Origin: Halomonas sp. TD01
GTDB taxonomy: Bacteria; Pseudomonadota; Gammaproteobacteria; Pseudomonadales; Halomonadaceae
Reading direction: 5' to 3'
NCBI RefSeq assembly: GCF_923868895.1
Contig: NZ_OV350343.1
Coordinates: forward strand, 3,224,001 to 3,288,000
Length of the DNA: 64,000 bases
The notes under the pieces are model-generated. The model was given only the letters and a program-made list of their open reading frames with translations, did no database searches and was not told where the DNA came from. The position numbers and the translations under genes were made by a program. The stretch's first letter is position 1. Each line of letters begins with the position of its first letter. Shown here one piece after another: positions 4,911 through 62,830 of this stretch.

Positions 4911-6002
4911 ATGTCCGATACGCCGATTAATTTAGACGATTTACGTCAACGTATCGACCAGTTGGATGGCGATATTCTGCGCTTGATTAGTGAGCGCGCC
5001 AACTGCGCCCAACAGGTGGCACACGTTAAGCTTGCCCAGGATAAAGACGCCATATTTTATCGTCCTGAGCGAGAGGCGCAGGTGTTGCGCCGTATTATGT
5101 CGTTGAATCAAGGCCCGCTAGATTCAGAAGAGATGGCGAGGCTGTTTCGCGAAATTATGTCGGCGTGTCTCGCGCTGGAACAACCTGTAAAAGTCGCCTA
5201 CTTAGGCCCTGAGGGTACATTTACCCAGCAGGCTGCGCTTAAACACTTCGGTGAGAGCGCTGTCAGTATGCCGATGGCAGCGATTGATGAAGTCTTTCGT
5301 GAAGTAGAGGCAGGCGCTGTTCATTACGGGGTTGTGCCGGTAGAGAACTCCACTGAAGGGGTTGTCAATCATACGCTCGACACCTTTATGGACTCGTCGA
5401 TCAAGATCTGCGGTGAAGTAGTGCTACGTATTCACCACCACCTGCTAATTAGCGAAACCACGCGTCGGGATAAGGTCTCACGCATCTATTCCCACCCACA
5501 GTCGTTTGGCCAGTGCCGTAAATGGCTTGATGCTCACTATCCACACGCTGAGCGAGTGCCAGTTTCCTCTAACGCAGAAGCTGCCAAGCTGGTCAAAACA
5601 GAGTGGCACAGCGCGGCAATTGCCGGAGATATGGCGGCCAAACTGTATGGTCTAGAACGCATTGCCGAAAAGATTGAAGATCGACCTGATAATTCCACGC
5701 GCTTTCTGATTATTGGTAATCAAGATGTGCCGATATCTGGCGAGGATAAAACCTCAATTGTTGTCGCTATGCGTAACCAGCCCGGTGCATTGCATGATTT
5801 GTTGGAGCCGTTCCATCGTCACCGTATTGATTTAACGCGGATAGAAACACGGCCTTCACGTACTGGTGTTTGGAATTATGTGTTTTTTATCGATTTCAAA
5901 GGGCATCGGGATGAACCACAGGTAGCGGCAGTGCTTGAAGAAGTAAGACTACGTGCTTCTGAGCTGCGTGTGCTTGGCTCCTATCCTCTAGGCGTGCTGT
6001 GA
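4911..6002 (+). CDS. pheA: Bifunctional chorismate mutase / prephenate dehydratase (P-protein)
   Basis: 363 residues with an AroQ-type chorismate mutase domain (about 5-90), a prephenate dehydratase domain (about 95-270, with VAYLGPEGTFTQQAA and VPVENSTEGVVNHTLD) and a C-terminal ACT regulatory domain (about 280-355, with NQPGALHDLLEPF and the ESRP-like IETRPSRTGVWNYVFFID). It makes phenylpyruvate from chorismate and is expected to be feedback-inhibited by phenylalanine through the ACT domain. The stop overlaps the GTG start of tyrA/aroA by 4 bp (GTGA). Confidence 0.95.
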   Translation: MSDTPINLDDLRQRIDQLDGDILRLISERANCAQQVAHVKLAQDKDAIFYRPEREAQVLRRIMSLNQGPLDSEEMARLFREIMSACLALEQPVKVAYLGPEGTFTQQAALKHFGESAVSMPMAAIDEVFREVEAGAVHYGVVPVENSTEGVVNHTLDTFMDSSIKICGEVVLRIHHHLLISETTRRDKVSRIYSHPQSFGQCRKWLDAHYPHAERVPVSSNAEAAKLVKTEWHSAAIAGDMAAKLYGLERIAEKIEDRPDNSTRFLIIGNQDVPISGEDKTSIVVAMRNQPGALHDLLEPFHRHRIDLTRIETRPSRTGVWNYVFFIDFKGHRDEPQVAAVLEEVRLRASELRVLGSYPLGVL

Positions 6003-21707: not shown

Positions 21708-21784
21708 CGGAGTGTGGCGCAGCTTGGTAGCGCGTTGCAATGGGGTTGCAAAGGTCGCAGGTTCGAATCCTGTCACTCCGACCA
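21708..21784 (+). tRNA. tRNA-Pro (anticodon GGG)
   Basis: A 77-nt cloverleaf: acceptor CGGAGTG/CACTCCG, D-arm with GCGCAGCTTGGTAGCGC, anticodon stem TTGCA/TGCAA with loop ATGGGGT (anticodon GGG), T-loop GTTCGAATC and encoded CCA. The 3' 46 bases belong to the prophage attachment core, so the present gene is a hybrid whose 3' part came with the phage but is identical to the displaced bacterial copy at 62784-62829. Confidence 0.97.
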
Positions 21785-21785
21785 A
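21739..21785 (+). repeat. attL (47-bp core in tRNA-Pro 3' end)
   Basis: Identical to 62784-62830. It spans the anticodon loop to one base past CCA, the usual target of tRNA-specific tyrosine integrases. Confidence 0.95.
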
Positions 21786-21893: not shown

Positions 21894-23033
21894 TTAAGAT
21901 GTGACGTTTTCCATGCCTGAAAGCAGTGCGTCCATTGTGAACGGGTTGCCCTTAGCTGATTGCCAGCGTGTGTCGTGACCGTCTAAATACACCTGGGTCG
22001 TGCTATCGTCTGCGTGACCCATGAGTACTTGAATGTCTTCAACTGAAGTACCTTTTAGCTCAAGTAGCCGTGAGCCAAGCGAGCGTATTTCATGAAACGT
22101 TGGGCGTTCCTCTTGAGGCATAGATTTTATATCTGGTATTAAGTCGCGAAGCTTTTCAAACTCTCTCGATAAATAATCAGGTGTTACTTGTGACCAATGC
22201 CTATTCCCTTTCCGGCTTGGCATTCTTAATGGCTTGCGATGAATTATAAAAGGAGATACTGGTTCAATCTGTCGTGACCTCTTAATTAAATCTTCAATCG
22301 CGGGTGTTAATTCAATAGCTACATAAGCTGTTTTGCTACGTTCTTTAGTTTTCTCACGAATATAATGTAGTCGCTCGTTTTTAATATCTTCGTATTTAGC
22401 GGCAACTGCTTCTGCTCTACCAAACAAACATAGCAGAGATAACTCCATTGCTATTTTCATCCAGTCATCTGCTAAAGCATGGATGTTTTGGAATTGCGCA
22501 ACGCTTAAGCGCGCCCTGACTTTCTTGTAATAGTTGTTCTTACGCGTGGGCTCTACTGGGTTGTGGTCAACCCAGCCCTTAGTTTGAGAGAACTGGAATA
22601 TCTGCGATAGCACTGAACGGTATTGAACGTACGCCGTGTTGTGATGATTTTCGCTCAGATATTCGGCACACCATCGGGTGGTGATGTTCTCTAGCAGCAT
22701 GCTGCCAGCATCATTGATGATGCGCTCGCCCCGGCCACGTTTTGCTTCTTTGGTCCAGTCCCCCAATGGGCTAGGTTTAACCCACTCTGCTAGCCAGGCT
22801 TTAATTGCGGTTTCCAGTGTGACACCGCTTTCGCCCATCACGTCCGCCACTAGATCCGCGCCTTTCATCAGGCGCACATTAAGTATGCGCGCCGCATCCT
22901 GGGCTTTAGCCCGATCCCTACCCATGCCGTGCCGGGAGCCAGTATCAGGGCGACGATAAATATAGTAACCGTTGCTCTCATACAGATTTGGCTCCAGCCC
23001 TTTGTTCTTTCGTATCCGTGGCCGTGGTGGCAT
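21894..23033 (-). CDS. int: Tyrosine recombinase (lambda-type integrase)
   Basis: 379 residues. N-terminal arm-site-binding domain with EPNLYESNGYYIYRRPDTG, very like lambda Int; core-binding SAM-like domain about 70-170; catalytic domain with Arg206, His314-x-x-Arg317 (HEIRSLGSRL), His340 (MGHADD) and nucleophile Tyr349. It should integrate and, with the small neighbour, excise the phage at tRNA-Pro. The stop of the excisionase and the integrase start are one base apart, indicating coupling. Confidence 0.96.
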   Translation of the reverse strand: MPPRPRIRKNKGLEPNLYESNGYYIYRRPDTGSRHGMGRDRAKAQDAARILNVRLMKGADLVADVMGESGVTLETAIKAWLAEWVKPSPLGDWTKEAKRGRGERIINDAGSMLLENITTRWCAEYLSENHHNTAYVQYRSVLSQIFQFSQTKGWVDHNPVEPTRKNNYYKKVRARLSVAQFQNIHALADDWMKIAMELSLLCLFGRAEAVAAKYEDIKNERLHYIREKTKERSKTAYVAIELTPAIEDLIKRSRQIEPVSPFIIHRKPLRMPSRKGNRHWSQVTPDYLSREFEKLRDLIPDIKSMPQEERPTFHEIRSLGSRLLELKGTSVEDIQVLMGHADDSTTQVYLDGHDTRWQSAKGNPFTMDALLSGMENVTS

Positions 23034-37668: not shown

Positions 37669-37744
37669 AGCGGCTGTGGACCACTGGCTGGTTGCCGGGC
37701 TCATATCCCGGAGATAGAGGGTTCGATTTCCGCCGCCGCTACCA
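37669..37744 (+). tRNA. Phage tRNA-Met-like gene (anticodon CAT)
   Basis: 76 nt ending in encoded CCA. Acceptor AGCGGC/GCCGCT with position 7:66 mismatched, anticodon stem CCGGG/CCCGG with loop CTCATAT, five-base variable loop, T-stem with one mismatch and T-loop TTCGATT. The D-arm (GACC/GGTT) pairs but needs one extra base before it. Lambdoid phages often carry tRNAs just here, ahead of lysis genes. It may be degraded or unusual; Met or Ile (if C34 is lysidinylated) are possible. Confidence 0.55.
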
Positions 37745-47319: not shown

Positions 47320-47888
47320 GCCAGTTAGCCCCCATTAAGATCACGGTCGATAAGCAAGCAATGCGCCGTGTCGAAAGCGATTTGGCGCACATCAAGAATG
47401 GCGCACCGCGTGCCATGAGCCTTGCCATCAACCACACCCTAGGCGTGACCCGCACGGAAGCGAGCAAAGAGATCCGTAAACAGGTCAAGCTGAAAGCGGG
47501 GTATGTGCGAGACAAGCTGAAGATCAAGCGCGCCACGGCGAATAGCTTGAACGGCGCTATCCAAACGCCGACGCGCGGCACGCTTCTAACGCGCTACTCG
47601 CATCGTCAGTATAAAAATGGCGGCATTGGCGTTCAGGTAAAACCTACAGGCGGAAAAAAGAAGATGCCTGGCGCGTTTTTCATCCGCTTTGCTAATGGCG
47701 TGCAAGCTATCGCTGTTCGCACTGAATACGGCCCAGGGCTTGGCCGCAGTGAAGGCCTGAAAGTTTTATACGGCCCATCCACTAGCCAAGTATTCACTGA
47801 CGTAAAAGACGACCTGCAGGCCCCAAGCGGAAACCGCTTAATGCAACGCCTTGGCTATGAGTCAGAGCGACTACTCAGACGGCAGTGA
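47316..47888 (+). CDS. Z: Minor tail protein Z-like
   Basis: 190 residues, basic. Features of the gpZ family: NGAPRAMSLAINHTLGVTRT, KEIRKQVKLKAGYVRDKL, TTYGPGLG-like TEYGPGLGRSEG. In lambda Z is needed for DNA positioning and tail joining. Confidence 0.82.
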   Translation: MSQLAPIKITVDKQAMRRVESDLAHIKNGAPRAMSLAINHTLGVTRTEASKEIRKQVKLKAGYVRDKLKIKRATANSLNGAIQTPTRGTLLTRYSHRQYKNGGIGVQVKPTGGKKKMPGAFFIRFANGVQAIAVRTEYGPGLGRSEGLKVLYGPSTSQVFTDVKDDLQAPSGNRLMQRLGYESERLLRRQ

Positions 47889-47889
47889 T

Positions 47890-48300
47890 ATGACCCCAAT
47901 ACGTGAACAGATCATCGCAGCGCTGGCCGCGCGGCTGAACGCTGAGCGTGCCAACAGCATCATCGACACGCTACCCGCTCGCAGTATTTGGGACGGCAGT
48001 GACGGCAATGTGGAGCGTAACCGCTACGGCGGCGTGAACGTCACCACGGAAATCACTGTTGAAACCGTGCACCAAGCTGACCGCGACCACCGCCAGTGGA
48101 GTACGCAAGGCAACGCGATATTGGCCGAGCTAATTGCCATTGCAACAGGCACTGACCGAACGCTAGGCGGGCTGGCTGAAGATATGGCCTACGCGGGCGG
48201 TACGATTTATTACCCCGAAGAAGGCAGCGACATTATCGGCGTCGATCTGGTGCTAACAGTGCGCTGGTCGCACCGTATTGGCGACCCATATTCACAGTAA
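47890..48300 (+). CDS. Tail terminator/completion protein (gpU position)
   Basis: 136 residues. MTPIREQIIAALAARLNAE then a beta-rich part (VTTEITVETVHQADRD; IIGVDLVLTVRWSHRIGDPY). Resembles tail-terminator proteins in layout. Assigned mainly by position. Confidence 0.65.
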   Translation: MTPIREQIIAALAARLNAERANSIIDTLPARSIWDGSDGNVERNRYGGVNVTTEITVETVHQADRDHRQWSTQGNAILAELIAIATGTDRTLGGLAEDMAYAGGTIYYPEEGSDIIGVDLVLTVRWSHRIGDPYSQ

Positions 48301-48824: not shown

Positions 48825-49394
48825 ATGGCATCTTTAACCGTGTATCGCGAAACAGCGCTACCTGGCACGCTAACCGCCAACAGCATTTATTTTGTCGCCC
48901 CAGCATCCCGACCCGATTATGTCGAAATTTACGTCACCGGCAACGACCCTGCCACCGTGAAGCGCGTCATTGATGAAGAGGATGTTCAGGCGCTGATCGA
49001 CGCCTCAATGGCCAGCGGTGGCGCCAATACATTAGAGATCGTCAACGATATAGCGGCCCGCGATGCGCTTGTGCTCGAAGGCAACACTTTGGTGCTAGTG
49101 TTAGACGCGTCAGCAGATGCGACCGTAGCAAGCGGCGCGGCAACCTACGCTTATCGACATAGCGATACCAGCTGGACAAAAATATCCGAAGCCGAATCGC
49201 TAGATATTAATTTCAACTGGTCGAGCCTTGCGGATAAACCTGTAAGCGCTGTTTCCGATATTGATGATGCAGTAACCAAGCGCCACGCCCACGCAAACAA
49301 AACCCAGCTCGATAAAATTGACGAAGATGCCAACGGCAACATGACTTACGGCGGCAGCCTGCCGGTCACCGCATGGGCGTCCAACAGCTGGTGA
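48825..49394 (+). CDS. Tail-associated protein sharing an N-terminal module with the DGR target
   Basis: 189 residues from ATG 48825 (GAGG upstream). N-terminal strands LPGTLTANSIYFVAP...VEIYVTG match in spacing the target's LPNVLVPDTVYYVRT...FDIYVSD. Middle part Asp/Ala-rich; the end has WSSLADKPVSAVSDIDDAVT, a phrase common in phage tail fibres. Probably a fibre or adaptor protein assembled with the target. Confidence 0.65.
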   Translation: MASLTVYRETALPGTLTANSIYFVAPASRPDYVEIYVTGNDPATVKRVIDEEDVQALIDASMASGGANTLEIVNDIAARDALVLEGNTLVLVLDASADATVASGAATYAYRHSDTSWTKISEAESLDINFNWSSLADKPVSAVSDIDDAVTKRHAHANKTQLDKIDEDANGNMTYGGSLPVTAWASNSW

Positions 49395-49402
49395 GGTGAT
49401 GC

Positions 49403-50512
49403 ATGGCAGAATTTAGAGCTGAAAAGGTAGTATCGACGCTGCCTAATGTGCTGGTACCCGATACCGTGTATTACGTGCGTACCGGCGAAGGGTTTGATAT
49501 TTATGTGTCGGACGCAACAGGAGCGGTAGCGCATAAACAGAATAATGCCCCCGCCAGCGAGCTAGACGCCGAAGCCATTGACCAGGTCCGGTCAACGTTT
49601 CAGATTTACGTGCCAGACCCGCTGCGGCGCTCAGTCGAGTCGGCCAGCGGCGGCAAGTGCACGGTTGAGTACACCGCCAATAAGCAACCCTGTTTTATGC
49701 ACGTTATCCCCAAGCTGCGCTGGGAAGACCTTATGCCTGGCCAAGAGCTTGGCACCGGTACCCATGAAGCATTTATTGAAAACGGCGTTGAGAAAAGCGA
49801 GCTGCTGGTGGGCATGTACATGGCGGCGGAAATCAATGGCGAGATGGTCAGCCAGCCCCGGACTACCGGGCGGCGATCCATCACTTGGGATCAATCAGTC
49901 TCAGCGGCGCAGGCCAGCGGCTTTGAGCTATTTGGCAGCTGGGAGTGGTCGGCTGTAGCGCTCTGGTGCATGGCAAACGGCTTTCAGCCTCGCGGCAACA
50001 CGGATTTTGGCAAAAGCCATAGCCATCCGCATGAGCGCGGCGTTTATGACGCGGACTCTGTGAGCAACGAGTACACGCTGCTAGGTAGCGGCCCTAACAC
50101 CTGGAGCCATAACAACTCCCCGAACGGCATCGCTGACTTGGTCGGCAATCGTTGGGAGTGGGTACGCGGCTTCAAGATGGTTGATGGGAGAATTCTATTA
50201 ACTCCCGATAACGATCCAGCGTTAGCAGAAAACGCCTGGGTAGATACTGGCTGGGATATGCCTAGTAATCGGACGTGGTCAACGGTTGATAGCGCTGGCG
50301 CGCCCCAGTCGGTAAAGCGCGCGCTGATTGTCCCTAATGGCGTTTCAGATCCTGACGGCTATCTATACACGAACCTCAGCGGCGAGCGCTTCCCGCTCCG
50401 TGGCGGCTACCGCAGCACCGGTGCCTACGCTGGTTTGGCCGCGCTGTTTCTCATCATTGCGCGCTCCAGCTCGAATGCGTATCTCGGGCTGCGGCTCTCG
50501 CGTTTGGTCTAA
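49403..50512 (+). CDS. DGR target protein with C-type-lectin/FGE-like variable domain
   Basis: 369 residues. Residues 1-50 form a small beta module shared with the upstream protein, probably for attachment to the tail. Residues about 70-369 are a formylglycine-generating-enzyme-sulfatase-like domain, the C-type-lectin fold used by many DGR targets: GSWEWSAVALWCMANG, GIADLVGNRWEWVRG, then the C-terminal RGGYRSTGAYAGLAALFLII region, which is the variable repeat (residues 329-369). Variable residues include 332, 336, 338, 339, 342, 349, 351, 352, 356 and 359-361. The protein should sit on the virion and bind host surface ligands; catalysis is not expected. Stop lies at the VR end. Confidence 0.93.
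   Translation: MAEFRAEKVVSTLPNVLVPDTVYYVRTGEGFDIYVSDATGAVAHKQNNAPASELDAEAIDQVRSTFQIYVPDPLRRSVESASGGKCTVEYTANKQPCFMHVIPKLRWEDLMPGQELGTGTHEAFIENGVEKSELLVGMYMAAEINGEMVSQPRTTGRRSITWDQSVSAAQASGFELFGSWEWSAVALWCMANGFQPRGNTDFGKSHSHPHERGVYDADSVSNEYTLLGSGPNTWSHNNSPNGIADLVGNRWEWVRGFKMVDGRILLTPDNDPALAENAWVDTGWDMPSNRTWSTVDSAGAPQSVKRALIVPNGVSDPDGYLYTNLSGERFPLRGGYRSTGAYAGLAALFLIIARSSSNAYLGLRLSRLV
50387..50509 (+). repeat. DGR variable repeat (VR)
   Basis: Aligns gap-free over 123 bp with TR 50970-51092. Thirteen differences in the core are at template adenines: 50396, 50408, 50415, 50418, 50426, 50447, 50448, 50454, 50457, 50469, 50477, 50480 and 50483. One core difference (50434, C to T) is not. A 19-bp identical GC-rich block (50484-50502) follows, which is the expected initiation-of-mutagenic-homing (IMH) site; beyond it VR and TR diverge. 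Confidence 0.95.
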
Positions 50513-50542
50513 TCGGGCATCTGGATACCTGGGTTCTGTTTT

Positions 50543-50558
50543 CGCCGCGATAGCGGCG
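50543..50558 (+). promoter_or_regulatory. Hairpin/cruciform downstream of VR
   Basis: CGCCGC-GATA-GCGGCG, a perfect 6-bp stem with a GATA tetraloop, 34 bp after VR. In studied phage DGRs a short hairpin with a GRNA-type tetraloop just past IMH is needed for target recognition. It could instead be a weak terminator, since TTTAAGGTTTTT follows. Confidence 0.65.
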
Positions 50559-50572
50559 TTTAAGGTTTTTGC

Positions 50573-50938
50573 ATGGAAGATTTGAAAATCAAGCTCAAGA
50601 TTGAGCGCATGATTGTGTATGGGTATTCCGCGTTACGTCAGTTTCCCAAGAGCGAAAAGCACACGCTTGCAGCAGAAATACGCCAGTGCATGTACGAGCT
50701 GTTGCGGCTGGTGTTAACCACTAATCGTAGATACCACAAGAAAACTACCGCAAGCGCCGTCGACACCGAGCTTGATGTGCTTCGCTCGCTCATTCGAGTT
50801 AGCTATGAGCTGGGCTTTCTCCCCATCCGCAAATATCAAATATGGAGTGAGCACCTGTATGAAATCGGATGCATGATTGGTGGCTGGCTGAAGTGGATCG
50901 GCAGTAACCCGCCTACGCCGCAAGTGCAGGCCGATTAG
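50573..50938 (+). CDS. avd: DGR accessory variability determinant (Avd)
   Basis: 121 residues, basic and all-helical, the four-helix-bundle layout of Avd (bAvd): KLKIERMIVYGYSALRQFPK, HTLAAEIRQCMYELLRLVLT, LDVLRSLIRVSYELGFLPIR and KYQIWSEHLYEIGCMIGGWL. Avd forms a pentameric barrel that binds the RT and TR-RNA and is required for cDNA synthesis. It stands between VR and TR, as in Bordetella phage BPP-1. Confidence 0.92.
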   Translation: MEDLKIKLKIERMIVYGYSALRQFPKSEKHTLAAEIRQCMYELLRLVLTTNRRYHKKTTASAVDTELDVLRSLIRVSYELGFLPIRKYQIWSEHLYEIGCMIGGWLKWIGSNPPTPQVQAD

Positions 50939-50969
50939 TAAGAAAGGGCTATGTGTTGAATTGTCCCTC

Positions 50970-51092
50970 CGCTTCCCGATCCGTGGCGGCAACCGCAACA
51001 ACGGTGCCAACGCTGGCTTGGCCGCGCTGAATCTCAACAATGCGCGCTCCAACTCGAATACGAATATCGGGCTGCGGCTCTCGCGCTTGATT
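50970..51092 (+). repeat. DGR template repeat (TR)
   Basis: The invariant template. Its core has 23 adenines in 13 codons of the VR frame, ten of which are AAC/AAT; none can become a stop by a change at A. It lies 31 bp after avd. The open reading frame through TR (from 50961) only reflects its match to the target gene and is not taken as a gene. Confidence 0.95.
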
Positions 51093-51241
51093 TGGCCAGA
51101 AGATGGTGGCTCACGGGCTGCCATCCAGCGCCTTCAAACGGATGCATAGCCCTCGGCAGAGCCGAAAAAACGTAAGCGCCTTGCGTGTGGTACTAAGCGG
51201 AAGCCCGCAAGGCGCGCCTTTAACTACAGCAAGGAAGCAGC
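51093..51241 (+). ncRNA. TR-RT spacer, structured part of the DGR template RNA
   Basis: 149 nt between TR and the RT start. In BPP-1 a downstream spacer of similar size is needed for priming and cDNA synthesis. It has a 9-bp perfect stem, 51176-51184 with 51207-51215 (GCGCCTTGC/GCAAGGCGC), and a smaller CGGC-AGA-GCCG hairpin at about 51154-51164. That it is part of the functional RNA is inferred. Confidence 0.6.
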
Positions 51242-52306
51242 GTGACACGAACAGGCCACCTTTTTGAACGCTATGCAAATTTTGATGCATTACACACAGG
51301 GTATTTAAGCGCCCGAAAAGGGTGCCGCGATAGCCATGCCTGCATGCGGTTTGAGTTACGGCTTGAAGAGAACCTTATTGAGCTTCTTAACCACTTGCAC
51401 TGGGGTAGCTATTCAACTGGCCCTTATAGACATTTCTATGTACACGAACCAAAGACGCGGCGAATCACAGCGCTAACGCAGTTTCGGGACCGTGTGCTGC
51501 AGCATGCCATGTATGCCGTGCTAGAGCCTATTTGGGAAAAGCGCTTCATATCGGACAGCTATGCATGTCGCGTGGGTAAAGGCACTCACCGCGCGGCGGA
51601 TAAGGCCCAGGCCATGCTAGGCGAGTGTCTCCGGAGTCACGGTAAGGTTTATGTGCTGAAGGCAGACATCGCGAAGTATTTCGCTAGCATCGATCACGTA
51701 ATAGCCAAGAGCCTACTAAATCGTGCAATTAAGTGTCCGCGAACAATTCTGCTGCTAGAAGCGATGATCGATACTTATCACGAGCCAGGAAAGACAGGGA
51801 AAGGCATGCCGATAGGCAACTTAATTAGCCAGCTGCTAGCTAACGTCTATCTGGATGCACTTGATCAGCATGTAAAGTGCCGGCTAAGCGAGCGATGGTA
51901 TTGTCGGTATATGGATGATTGGCTGATTATCGGGCCGGATAAGCAACACTTGCATAAAAGGCGCATCGAGCTGGACTGGTGGCTCGCAGAGCATCTGGCG
52001 CTGGAAACTAACCATAAAACCAGCGTTTTTCCAGTAAGCCCAGCAAATGGCCGAGGCTTGGATTTCGTTGGTTACCACATGTGGCCGCACAAGCGACGAC
52101 TACGCAAAGGAAGCATGAAGCGATTTAAGCGCCGCGTGAATCGGCTTCGTCAGCAATACTCAGCCGGCGATGTCGACGTGCGTGACGTGCAGATGCAGAT
52201 TAGTTCGTGGTTAGCCCATGCTAGTCACGCTAACGCTGAGGGATTTGTGCGCTCGGTTATTTATGATCAGCCTTGGGAGCGACAGAATGCCGCTATTTGT
52301 GATTGA
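51242..52306 (+). CDS. DGR reverse transcriptase
   Basis: 354 residues from GTG 51242 with AAGGAAG upstream. RT motifs in order: FRDRVLQHAMYAVLEPIWE (motif 1-2 region), KADIAKYFASIDH with catalytic Asp142, GMPIGNLISQLLANVYLDAL with IGNLISQ at 191-197 (DGR RTs have SQ where group II introns and retrons have SP), YMDD at 223-226, HKTSVFPVSPANGRGLDFVGY (motif 6-7) and a basic thumb KRRLRKGSMKRFKRRVNRLR. No maturase, endonuclease or protease domain. Copies TR-RNA with adenine-specific errors. Confidence 0.96.
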   Translation: MTRTGHLFERYANFDALHTGYLSARKGCRDSHACMRFELRLEENLIELLNHLHWGSYSTGPYRHFYVHEPKTRRITALTQFRDRVLQHAMYAVLEPIWEKRFISDSYACRVGKGTHRAADKAQAMLGECLRSHGKVYVLKADIAKYFASIDHVIAKSLLNRAIKCPRTILLLEAMIDTYHEPGKTGKGMPIGNLISQLLANVYLDALDQHVKCRLSERWYCRYMDDWLIIGPDKQHLHKRRIELDWWLAEHLALETNHKTSVFPVSPANGRGLDFVGYHMWPHKRRLRKGSMKRFKRRVNRLRQQYSAGDVDVRDVQMQISSWLAHASHANAEGFVRSVIYDQPWERQNAAICD

Positions 52307-52814
52307 GCCTATTGATACTCAAAACGGCGAGCGCCAGACAGAGCCGCAGGGTGCGCAATCGCTCGGGCACGCCGCCGGGGTGCGCTGGTACAAAGCCGAC
52401 GCTATTCCGACGGAAGGGCGCGCGCCTACTACTGATGAGATGACAGCCGCCAATCTTGAGTTGCCCGCCATCCGCAACCTTAAAGCGTCAGCACGTCGAA
52501 AGATAGAAGCTGAGGTGGGTGATCTGCATGAGGTCGTGGCAGATCAGGCAAAGCAGATCGAAGCACTCACCGTGATGCTTTGCCACTTATCCGCGGAATA
52601 TCTTGGCGGCAAAGTGATGAGCGAAGTTGCTAAAACGACCTATCTAGCGCGCGTGCAAAAAGTGCTGAGTGCGATCGATAGCGGCGCGTTACAGCTGCGG
52701 GGTGATCTGGAGGGTACTGACGACATGCTAGAGAAAACGCTTTACCGCACTAATCGCATTAATGAGATCGTAGGTAGCGATTACCTGCCTCAGAGGGAAA
52801 GCTTGCTTAATTAA
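52287..52814 (+). CDS. Unknown protein overlapping the RT gene end
   Basis: 175 residues from ATG 52287 (GGGAG upstream), overlapping the RT by 20 bp, so translationally coupled. N-terminal polar part with YKADAIPTEGRAPTTDE and a central helix DLHEVVADQAKQIEALTVML with a second helix toward the end. No known DGR factor (HRDC, MSL) is recognised; a tail/fibre-assembly protein displaced downstream by DGR insertion is equally likely. Confidence 0.55.
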   Translation: MPLFVIEPIDTQNGERQTEPQGAQSLGHAAGVRWYKADAIPTEGRAPTTDEMTAANLELPAIRNLKASARRKIEAEVGDLHEVVADQAKQIEALTVMLCHLSAEYLGGKVMSEVAKTTYLARVQKVLSAIDSGALQLRGDLEGTDDMLEKTLYRTNRINEIVGSDYLPQRESLLN

Positions 52815-52837
52815 GCGCGAGCGAAGAGCACTGCTAT

Positions 52838-52882
52838 GCCCGCCATTGCGCGGGCTTTTTCTTGCCCGTTCGCCGGGCTTTT
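52838..52882 (+). terminator. Tandem terminators after the DGR unit
   Basis: GCCCGC/GCGGGC with T5, then GCCCG/CGGGC with T4, directly before the major tail protein. They would set the upstream DGR unit apart from tail-tube transcription. Confidence 0.75.
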
Positions 52883-52907
52883 GATAACGCACTACAGGAG
52901 AGCGCCC

Positions 52908-53897
52908 GTGGCGATCACTGAAAACCCCAAACTAGAGTACGAGTCCGGCCAGTCTTTTAATGATTGGGAGCACATGAGCGACACCGGCGACGCCATGGTG
53001 TTTGAAGCCACGTTTGCGCCATGGAGCGCCCGCGCGGGGTTTGATGCCTCTGTGCGCCCATGGGGCCTGGCAACAGGCGGCCAGATTCGCGCAGGCAGCG
53101 GTAACGACAATGTGACCGTATCAGCGCTTAGCGCCTACATGCCCACGGCAGTGGCGGCTGAGGCTGACGGCGTGGTCAATGTCGCAAGCGGCGATGTGTC
53201 TGTTTCACGCGCGGCGACCGCCACGCACATGATCACGAGCATTACCGTTGATGCGAGCGGTGCACTGGAGGCGATTTCAGGCACCGAGGGCAGCGCATTT
53301 ACCGAGCAGCGCGGTGAAGCCGGTGGCCCGCCCTTCATCCCCGTAGAAAGCATCGAGATCGGCCAAGTACGTGTGAACGGTGCCGATGCTGCGCCTGTCT
53401 CTGACACTCAGATCATGCAAGTGGTCGGCTTGCATCAGGAGCGCTACGACAGCCCTGTGTTCGAGGCGGACCCCGCTACCGGCGAGGTGCATTTTGCAGC
53501 AGAGCTGCCACGCATTCACACAGGAAGCGTGACCAAGAAAGTGTCAGTTCGTGGCTACACACCAATCTTTGCCGAGATCCCGCGTGCCAGCGACTGGGTG
53601 CCGGCGGAAACTTCACACTCAACCACGTCAACCGAGATTTACAACGGCACGCTGGGCAGTGTTTCCCGCTCGCTGGGCCAGGCATCGTTTACCTACTACG
53701 GCGAAGGCAACGCTAACGACCCGCTTGTACGGCTGAAAAACCAGCGTCTCTGGTTCCGCTGGTACCAGGATCGCAACCGCTCGCCGTTCTCGCTAACGCA
53801 GGGCATTTTGGGTATTGGACGCACATACCCAGCGGGTGATCACGTCAACATCGCGTGCACGGTCTCTGCTGAGCAAGAAACCGCAGATTTTGAGTAA
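52908..53897 (+). CDS. Major tail (tube) protein
   Basis: 329 residues from GTG 52908 (CAGGAGA upstream; the ATG frame start at 52836 lies in the terminators). Tail-tube-like beta architecture with Ig-like insert region (VSRAATATHMITSITVDASG); ends FSLTQGILGIGRTYPAGD-HVNI. Immediately precedes the G/GT chaperone, as in lambda V-G-T-H. Confidence 0.75.
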   Translation: MAITENPKLEYESGQSFNDWEHMSDTGDAMVFEATFAPWSARAGFDASVRPWGLATGGQIRAGSGNDNVTVSALSAYMPTAVAAEADGVVNVASGDVSVSRAATATHMITSITVDASGALEAISGTEGSAFTEQRGEAGGPPFIPVESIEIGQVRVNGADAAPVSDTQIMQVVGLHQERYDSPVFEADPATGEVHFAAELPRIHTGSVTKKVSVRGYTPIFAEIPRASDWVPAETSHSTTSTEIYNGTLGSVSRSLGQASFTYYGEGNANDPLVRLKNQRLWFRWYQDRNRSPFSLTQGILGIGRTYPAGDHVNIACTVSAEQETADFE

Positions 53898-62783: not shown

Positions 62784-62830
62784 AATGGGGTTGCAAAGGT
62801 CGCAGGTTCGAATCCTGTCACTCCGACCAA
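62784..62830 (+). repeat. attR (47-bp core)
   Basis: Perfect copy of 21739-21785. Represents the displaced bacterial 3' end of tRNA-Pro; no 5' half is present, so it is not a tRNA gene. Confidence 0.95.

What the first reader, a model, noticed from the sequence alone, without database searches (positions are those of the whole stretch)
49403..52306. Complete diversity-generating retroelement inside the prophage tail region
All parts are present in the order target (CLec/FGE fold) - VR - hairpin - avd - TR - spacer - RT, the same order as mtd-avd-TR-brt in Bordetella phage BPP-1. The RT has IGNLISQ and YMDD, an Avd-like helical protein is present, and VR and TR show adenine-specific differences. 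It is likely active or recently active, and would let this Halomonas-type phage change receptor specificity. The cassette stands upstream of the major tail protein rather than at the end of the tail genes.
Basis: partly seen in the sequence, partly recalled or inferred. Interest (0 to 1): 0.95.

Follow-up and report, generated by a model that had tools for sequence, protein, structure and literature searches.

The report
Hypermutating tail-protein cassette in a prophage
A dormant virus in a bacterium of the Halomonas family carries a complete, known type of machine that rewrites part of one of its own proteins; the machine is ordinary, but relatives that lost the machine and kept the protein, and an unknown companion gene, make it somewhat interesting.

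Summary
VR and TR differ at 15 of 120 bases, 13 at TR adenines (p 1e-9). Avd and RT match DGR families, the RT groups with BPP-1 Brt, the target models as the TaqVP lectin fold, and a GRNA-loop hairpin follows VR. It lies in a 41-kb tRNA-Pro prophage with both att sites. In 47 target proteins the 13 codons holding A in this TR are hypervariable (2.99 against 0.47 bits). No VR change was seen in this strain. Verdict: new member of a known kind.

Beyond the finding: (1) an orphan 175-aa gene (52287-52814) overlaps the RT stop and follows the DGR RT, or its remnant, in the five loci read; (2) three relatives lost the RT but kept the target, two of them keeping this gene, so it more likely serves the fibre than the RT; (3) covarying RNA hairpins lie between TR and RT. 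The place before the presumed tail tube gene is an optional-gene slot in relatives.

The parts
21739..21785 (+). attL, 3' end of tRNA-Pro; 47-bp core
   Evidence: 47-bp exact repeat at 62784-62830; tRNA
62784..62830 (+). attR, 47-bp core
   Evidence: ORFs without phage look follow in L094 (judged by eye)
21894..23033 (-). integrase next to attL
   Evidence: PHROG 1, 3.2e-41
48825..49394 (+). 189-aa protein upstream of the target, PHROG 7946; in L087 its homolog (54%) also precedes a protein with the target's N-terminus
49403..50512 (+). DGR target (variable) protein, FGE-type C-type-lectin fold from about residue 70; residues 1-51 match PHROG 7980, probable docking part (inferred)
   Evidence: PDB 5vf4 TaqVP 3.5e-54 by sequence, Foldseek TMq 0.74; PHROGs; model
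50387..50506 (+). variable repeat VR
50486..50502 (+). GC-rich 17 nt identical in VR and TR (IMH-like; TR copy 51069-51085); role inferred
   Evidence: alignment
50543..50558 (+). hairpin, 6-bp stem, GATA (GRNA) loop
   Evidence: 26 of 42 stretches have such a stem, 24 with GRNA; 3% of shuffles
50573..50938 (+). avd
   Evidence: Pfam bAvd 9.3e-30, NCBIfam NF033474 116.5 bits, cut-off 80, PHROG 3206
50970..51089 (+). template repeat TR
51104..51213 (+). TR-RT spacer RNA with three hairpins (51104-51111/51116-51123; 51154-51157/51161-51164; 51178-51185/51206-51213), places read off the alignment
   Evidence: 90.8% of cells paired, 72 two-sided changes; at most 48.6% paired when slid
51242..52306 (+). 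DGR reverse transcriptase, IGNLISQ, YMDD
   Evidence: PHROG 1423 6.4e-126; PDB 8ub7 1.6e-51; tree
52287..52814 (+). g52287, 175-aa orphan protein, start overlaps RT 3' end by 20 nt
52836..53897 (+). probable tail tube (major tail) protein, by gene order only
   Evidence: PHROG 30644 unknown function; Marinobacter phage PS3 synteny

Best explanation
A complete BPP-1-type DGR inside a temperate phage that is complete at its ends. The TR transcript, with its conserved hairpin spacer, is copied by the RT-Avd complex with errors at adenines; the cDNA replaces VR at the 3' end of the target gene, whose GC-rich IMH-like end is followed by the GRNA hairpin. This rewrites up to 13 codons near the C-terminus of an FGE-type lectin fold in a small fibre-like protein, most likely used in adsorption. 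Shown here: parts, A-specificity, predicted fold, family-level hypervariability at the expected codons, RNA covariation. Inferred from BPP-1: retrohoming, priming, ligand binding. The gene after the RT (g52287) most likely makes a small structural or assembly partner of the fibre that travels with it; this last part alone deserves about 0.6.
For: 13 of 15 VR/TR mismatches at TR A. 53 of 66 loci from the RT searches (L005-L070; L005 is the same or a near-identical strain) have such an A-biased pair by one finder, 13 do not; the own-genome RT-like loci L002-L004 have none. Pooled over 45 distinct pairs 556 of 1103 A sites but 60 of 4169 other sites are changed (these pairs were selected for A-bias). 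RT: PHROG 1423, best PDB sequence match 8ub7, tree. Avd over curated cut-offs. TaqVP fold. 47 target proteins: 2.99 bits at 13 TR-A codons, 0.47 at 27 others, p 2.3e-7; nearest relative P0076: 12 of 12 VR differences at those codons. Hairpin. Spacer RNA covariation. Prophage ends.
Against: VR identical in the one other assembly found. Hairpin stem one pair shorter and slightly further from VR than the published range. A single-sequence fold of TR plus spacer is no better than shuffles (z -0.40). Virion location of the target unknown; most of its first 69 residues model below pLDDT 50. For g52287 as fibre partner: one relative (L076) keeps the target but has lost g52287.
Confidence: 0.93

Rival explanations
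1. The DGR is intact in sequence but silent in this lysogen; VR is a frozen record of past mutagenesis.
For: Identical VR in two assemblies; RT lost in three relatives read, so loss is tolerated.
Against: RT, Avd, TR and target are all open and intact; only 2 of 97 non-A sites differ between VR and TR, both silent, so little drift since the last transfer.
Confidence: 0.35
2. g52287 is a dedicated DGR accessory factor (a fifth component acting with RT or Avd), not a fibre partner.
For: Directly after, or overlapping the end of, the RT or its remnant in the five loci read (window, L006, L007, L054, G185); lost together with the RT in L076.
Against: Intact where the RT is gone in two loci (L099/L054 and G185). 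In L036 the same slot holds a Pfam tail assembly chaperone (1.1e-18).
Confidence: 0.3
3. The RT belongs to a retron or group II intron and the repeat is a chance or segmental duplication.
For: Sub-cut-off match to NCBIfam group II maturase (143.7 of 300 bits).
Against: TR/VR asymmetry (p 1e-9), tree, Avd, retron model 35.4 of 235 bits.
Confidence: 0.01

Closest known systems
Bordetella phage BPP-1 DGR (mtd-avd-TR-brt; AY029185)
   Same: Same gene order and RT clade, 3'-terminal VR, hairpin with GRNA loop after VR (passages of PMC3240598); the gene after brt (bbp4) also overlaps it by 20 nt in the record
   Different: RT 35% identical; other target architecture (recalled); here the cassette stands before the presumed tail tube gene, and the post-RT gene found no match in the phage records at E 0.01
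Thermus aquaticus prophage DGR variable protein TaqVP (PDB 5vf4; PMC6328139, passages read)
   Same: Target fold and sequence relationship, C-terminal VR, AAY codons
   Different: Target here aligns from residue 69 on: an N-terminal extension, probably for docking
Decayed DGR of Halomonas sp. SSL-5 (genome G185; target identical to P0109)
   Same: Target 60%, avd 78%, g52287 56%
   Different: TR matches only to base 72, and a LAGLIDADG-like ORF stands where most of the RT should be
Chromohalobacter phage YPCBV-1 DGR (OP380511; PMC9769972, passages read)
   Same: Target-Avd-TR-RT; 14 of 14 VR/TR mismatches at TR A
   Different: Mu-like phage by its paper; RT 40% identical; the paper lists the target gene as an auxiliary metabolic gene with a possible antioxidant role

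Membership tests
Diversity-generating retroelement | RT of the DGR clade with YxDD | tested here: met
Diversity-generating retroelement | TR/VR pair differing mainly at TR adenines | tested here: met
Diversity-generating retroelement | Accessory protein Avd (in this class) | tested here: met
Diversity-generating retroelement | Target with C-type-lectin fold, VR at the 3' end | tested here: met
   (fold is a prediction)
Diversity-generating retroelement | IMH: GC-rich 3' end shared by VR and TR | tested here: inconclusive
   17 identical GC-rich nt seen; function not testable here
Diversity-generating retroelement | Hairpin/cruciform with GRNA loop after VR (published 7-10 bp stem, 4-34 bp away) | tested here: inconclusive
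   GATA loop present, but 6-bp stem with 36 nt between VR and stem
Diversity-generating retroelement | Mutagenic retrohoming observed | not testable with these tools
   needs sequencing of phage populations; only family variation seen
Retron | Retron RT over curated cut-off (one model, St85 family) | tested here: not met
   35.4 of 235 bits
Group II intron | Group II RT/maturase over curated cut-off | tested here: not met
   143.7 of 300 bits

The most novel reading that the evidence does not exclude
Diversify, then freeze: in Halomonas-family phages the DGR serves for a time to search receptor space and is then deleted or disrupted, leaving the fibre (and usually its partner g52287) fixed with a VR that still bears the A-substitution imprint. 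The family thus holds live DGRs, scars and fixed fibres side by side, and g52287 is an unrecognised component of the hypervariable fibre.
Probability: 0.25. Interest if true: 0.6.

Novelty: new member of a known kind. Interest (0 to 1): 0.37.

Why it matters
It is a well-preserved DGR in a host family where the genomes held here have few: RT in 1 of 82 genus genomes at E 1e-60, avd in 3 of 275 family genomes at E 1e-10, the third weak. Relatives with RT scars would make a question testable for which I found little in print: when and how a phage gives up a hypermutation machine and keeps one version of its receptor-binding protein. g52287 is a concrete new gene to test.

Tried and rejected
Retron or group II identity: rejected. 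The tree tool warns of long branches among outgroup rows. The outgroup labels are mine: only one of the five 'retron' rows passes the retron model's cut-off, and the 'group II' rows were named from length and scores. So only the grouping of the window RT with other DGR RTs is used.

A second VR in the genome: none found.

g52287 by fold or family: no match at E <= 0.001 in PDB or BFVD; no Pfam or PHROG at 0.001, only sub-cut-off hits in a loose scan; no match in the phage records at E 0.01. Function is argued from context only.

Thermodynamic folding of TR plus spacer: z -0.40; only covariation supports structure. The structure was predicted from the same alignment, which favours it on cells paired, and the 15 rows were picked by me from the loci at hand. 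One of the five measures, pairs with a change on both sides, was reached by 66 of 500 shuffles.

Shared deletion breakpoint in L076 and L099 just after the target stop: dropped, since L076 may keep about 11 more nt of the old 3' region.

The RT table (best 120 of 5206) does not list the window's own RT, and the g52287 of G185 sits in cluster P0050, whose listed contig is another one. I lowered the novel case from 0.3 to 0.25 for this.

N-termini of 48825-49394 and the target: similarity weak (5 of 15 residues, E 0.007).

G185, in the same family, matches Halomonas sp. SSL-5. That the strain may be Halomonas bluephagenesis TD01 is recall only; the name was merely looked up.
Full report
Observation. 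The stretch 49403-52306 holds, in order, target gene with VR at its end, hairpin, avd, TR, spacer and RT. VR 50387-50506 and TR 50970-51089 align without gaps over 120 bases. Of 15 mismatches, 13 lie at TR adenines (7 to T, 3 to C, 3 to G) and two are silent C/T differences; none lies at a VR adenine (p = 1.1e-9). In the 4.14-Mb genome TR matches itself and this VR only.

Identity of the parts. Avd matches Pfam bAvd (9.3e-30), NCBIfam DivGenRetAVD (116.5 bits, cut-off 80) and PHROG 3206. The RT matches PHROG 1423 (6.4e-126); its best PDB sequence match is 8ub7 (1.6e-51; that this entry is the BPP-1 DGR RT is recalled), ahead of 6ar1, a group II RT (7.6e-21). It stays far below the curated cut-offs for group II (143.7 of 300 bits) and the St85 retron model (35.4 of 235). 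In a 40-row tree it groups with L006, L007 and L008 (100/100) inside a set of 29 rows (97/92) that holds the 27 DGR rows, BPP-1 included, and two rows labelled 'other', one of which (L069) has an A-specific repeat pair. Five rows labelled group II and five labelled retron lie outside; those labels are mine, and only one of the retron rows passes that model's cut-off. The tool warns of long branches among them.

The target matches TaqVP (5vf4) by sequence (3.5e-54, residues 69-277). Its model (mean pLDDT 83; below 50 for most of residues 1-69) finds TaqVP first (TMq 0.74); formylglycine-generating enzymes, EgtB, Mtd and TvpA follow at E about 1e-4 to 1e-3 with TM-scores near 0.3.

Is it more than one lucky pair? 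Of the 66 loci that the RT searches brought from viral and genome contigs (L005-L070), 53 gave a TR/VR pair biased to A with one finder; 13 did not (L009, L010, L011, L013, L018, L019, L030, L046, L049, L053, L054, L068, L070), several of them cut by contig ends; L002-L004, other RT-like loci of this genome, gave none. Some of the 53 are near-copies; over 45 distinct pairs, selected for A-bias, 556 of 1103 A sites and 60 of 4169 other sites were changed. In the 47 target proteins nearest to this one (P0075-P0121, the query included), the 13 VR codons that contain A in this TR have mean entropy 2.99 bits, the other 27 codons 0.47 (p = 2.3e-7). The nearest relative, P0076, differs at 55 of 369 residues; its 12 differences within VR all fall on those codons. 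This is family-level evidence that the mechanism works in nature. For this strain there is none: L005, 99.97% identical over 15.7 kb, has the same VR, and it is probably the same strain sequenced earlier (inference).

Cis signals. After VR lies CGCCGC-GATA-GCGGCG. A perfect stem of 6 or more pairs was found in 26 of 42 distinct stretches after VR (the window included), 24 with a GRNA loop, against 3% of shuffles; 16 had none by this rule. Guo et al. 2011 (PMC3240598, passages read) give 7-10 bp stems, GRNA loops and 4-34 bp distance for phage DGRs; here the stem is 6 bp and 36 nt from VR, slightly outside both. Between TR and RT, 15 stretches that I chose share three hairpins: 90.8% of cells pair (at most 48.6% when slid) and 72 cells change on both sides against 25.3 in shuffles; the number of pairs with a two-sided change (15) is reached by 66 of 500 shuffles. 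Single-sequence folding energy is unremarkable. I take this as the structured 3' part of the TR RNA, by analogy with BPP-1 (recalled).

Setting. The prophage has both ends: 47-bp att cores at 21739-21785 (3' end of tRNA-Pro) and 62784-62830, integrase beside attL. Terminase, portal, protease, decoration, capsid, closure and neck genes precede the DGR, the tape measure gene follows. The gene just after the cassette, 52836-53897, has no named family; its place shortly before the tape measure gene, as in Marinobacter phage PS3, suggests the tail tube protein.

Eleven viral loci carry that gene; one is the same strain. In the other ten the site between the homologs of 47851-48300 and of the tube gene holds: a 130-aa ORF plus a target homolog without DGR (L076); other forward ORFs (L078, L083, L084); an opposite-strand ORF of 255 or 161 aa (L077, L081); 184 nt with one 63-aa ORF (L082); or 17-53 nt (L079, L080, L085). 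The site is a slot for optional genes. Three DGR loci that I picked by eye, because the following ORF looked like a tail sheath, do lie upstream of one (L021, L012, and VP58.5 with one gene between), so placement near tail shaft genes is not foreign to DGRs; I did not survey the rest. L087 carries a homolog of 48825-49394 followed by a protein with the target's first 51 residues (61%) and a different rest, which points to an exchangeable docking part.

The extra gene. g52287 (52287-52814) starts 20 nt before the RT end. The search found 74 relatives at E 0.001, none with a Pfam domain or a name other than hypothetical; 2 of 275 family genomes match at E 1e-10. The model (pLDDT 87) is a small strand region plus helices without a significant fold match. 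Four viral loci were found with a family profile: one is the same strain, L006 and L007 have it at the end of a full RT, L054 after an RT remnant; G185 is the fifth case. In BPP-1 the gene after brt also overlaps it by 20 nt, and in L036 that slot encodes a Pfam tail assembly chaperone (1.1e-18); the corresponding ORFs of VP58.5 and phiARM81mr match no Pfam family.

Scars. (a) L076, whose target is identical to P0083 of Halomonas citrativorans, keeps the target (76%) and the tube gene. Between the conserved 3' end of the one and the conserved leader of the other lie 47 nt, 37 of which match RT codons around DIAKYFASIDH (32 of 37 in L006 and L007, 29 of 37 here, worked out from the scores; observed score 21, best of 300 shuffles 14). 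(b) L099 and L054, contigs of one metagenome that overlap by 62 identical bases, run from the target stop straight into the RT C-terminus and then g52287. (c) G185, Halomonas sp. SSL-5, keeps target, avd and 72 bases of TR (8 of 8 VR/TR mismatches at A), then a LAGLIDADG-like ORF, then an RT C-terminal remnant and an intact g52287 relative. Two of three keep g52287 without RT, one has lost both. L127 shows an intact avd after its target, then the contig ends.

Literature. One held paper has both 'diversity-generating retroelement' and Halomonas, on Chromohalobacter phage YPCBV-1 (passages read). In Roux et al. 2021 (PMC8144416) I searched six terms and read the passages shown; the words accessory, Avd and Halomonas do not occur in its main text. 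In the tentaclin paper (PMC10743442) six loss-type terms gave no passage. Searches for DGR decay or remnants listed no paper whose title or shown abstract start treats it; I did not read those papers.

Verdict. An intact DGR, very probably functional as a type, and ordinary as a kind. The scars and the companion gene are what a specialist might follow up.

Noticed in passing
L122 4256-5305 (Chromohalobacter phage YPCBV-1, OP380511): The gene published as a SUMF1/EgtB auxiliary metabolic gene with a possible antioxidant role is the DGR target: VR 5171-5296 lies in it and 14 of 14 mismatches to TR 5688-5813 are at TR adenines.
   Followed up: yes
L062 7757-12723 and L029 5856-10723 (Pigmentiphaga humi; IMGVR_UViG_2574180442_000002): Tandem double DGR: avd-TR-RT followed by a second avd, a second TR-like stretch and a second RT; no separate VR for the second TR seen in the fetched flank.
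   Followed up: partly
L091 521-1465 (-) / L096 5207-6151 (-), genome G185: A LAGLIDADG-like ORF (24.8 bits, cut-off 22.5) stands where TR base 73 to most of the RT should be; whether homing endonucleases attack TRs is open.
   Followed up: partly
L106 and L107: Target homologs (45%) with no match to avd or RT and no TR-like repeat in the 6 kb downstream; next genes look replication-like (judged by eye).
   Followed up: no
window 37669-37744: Weak tRNA-Met gene (Rfam 30.1 bits, cut-off 29) inside the prophage.
   Followed up: no
G000:C1:3165927-3166793 and 3168733-3169599 (outside the window): Two RT genes (607-aa frames, probably group II) with identical scores about 2.8 kb apart, some 54-58 kb before the window.
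   Followed up: no
L099 end and L054 start: The two contigs overlap by exactly 62 bases starting just after VR, which may be an assembly break at a variable site.
   Followed up: no
table: The protein search with the window RT does not list the window's own RT although target and g52287 of this genome are listed (checked).
   Followed up: partly
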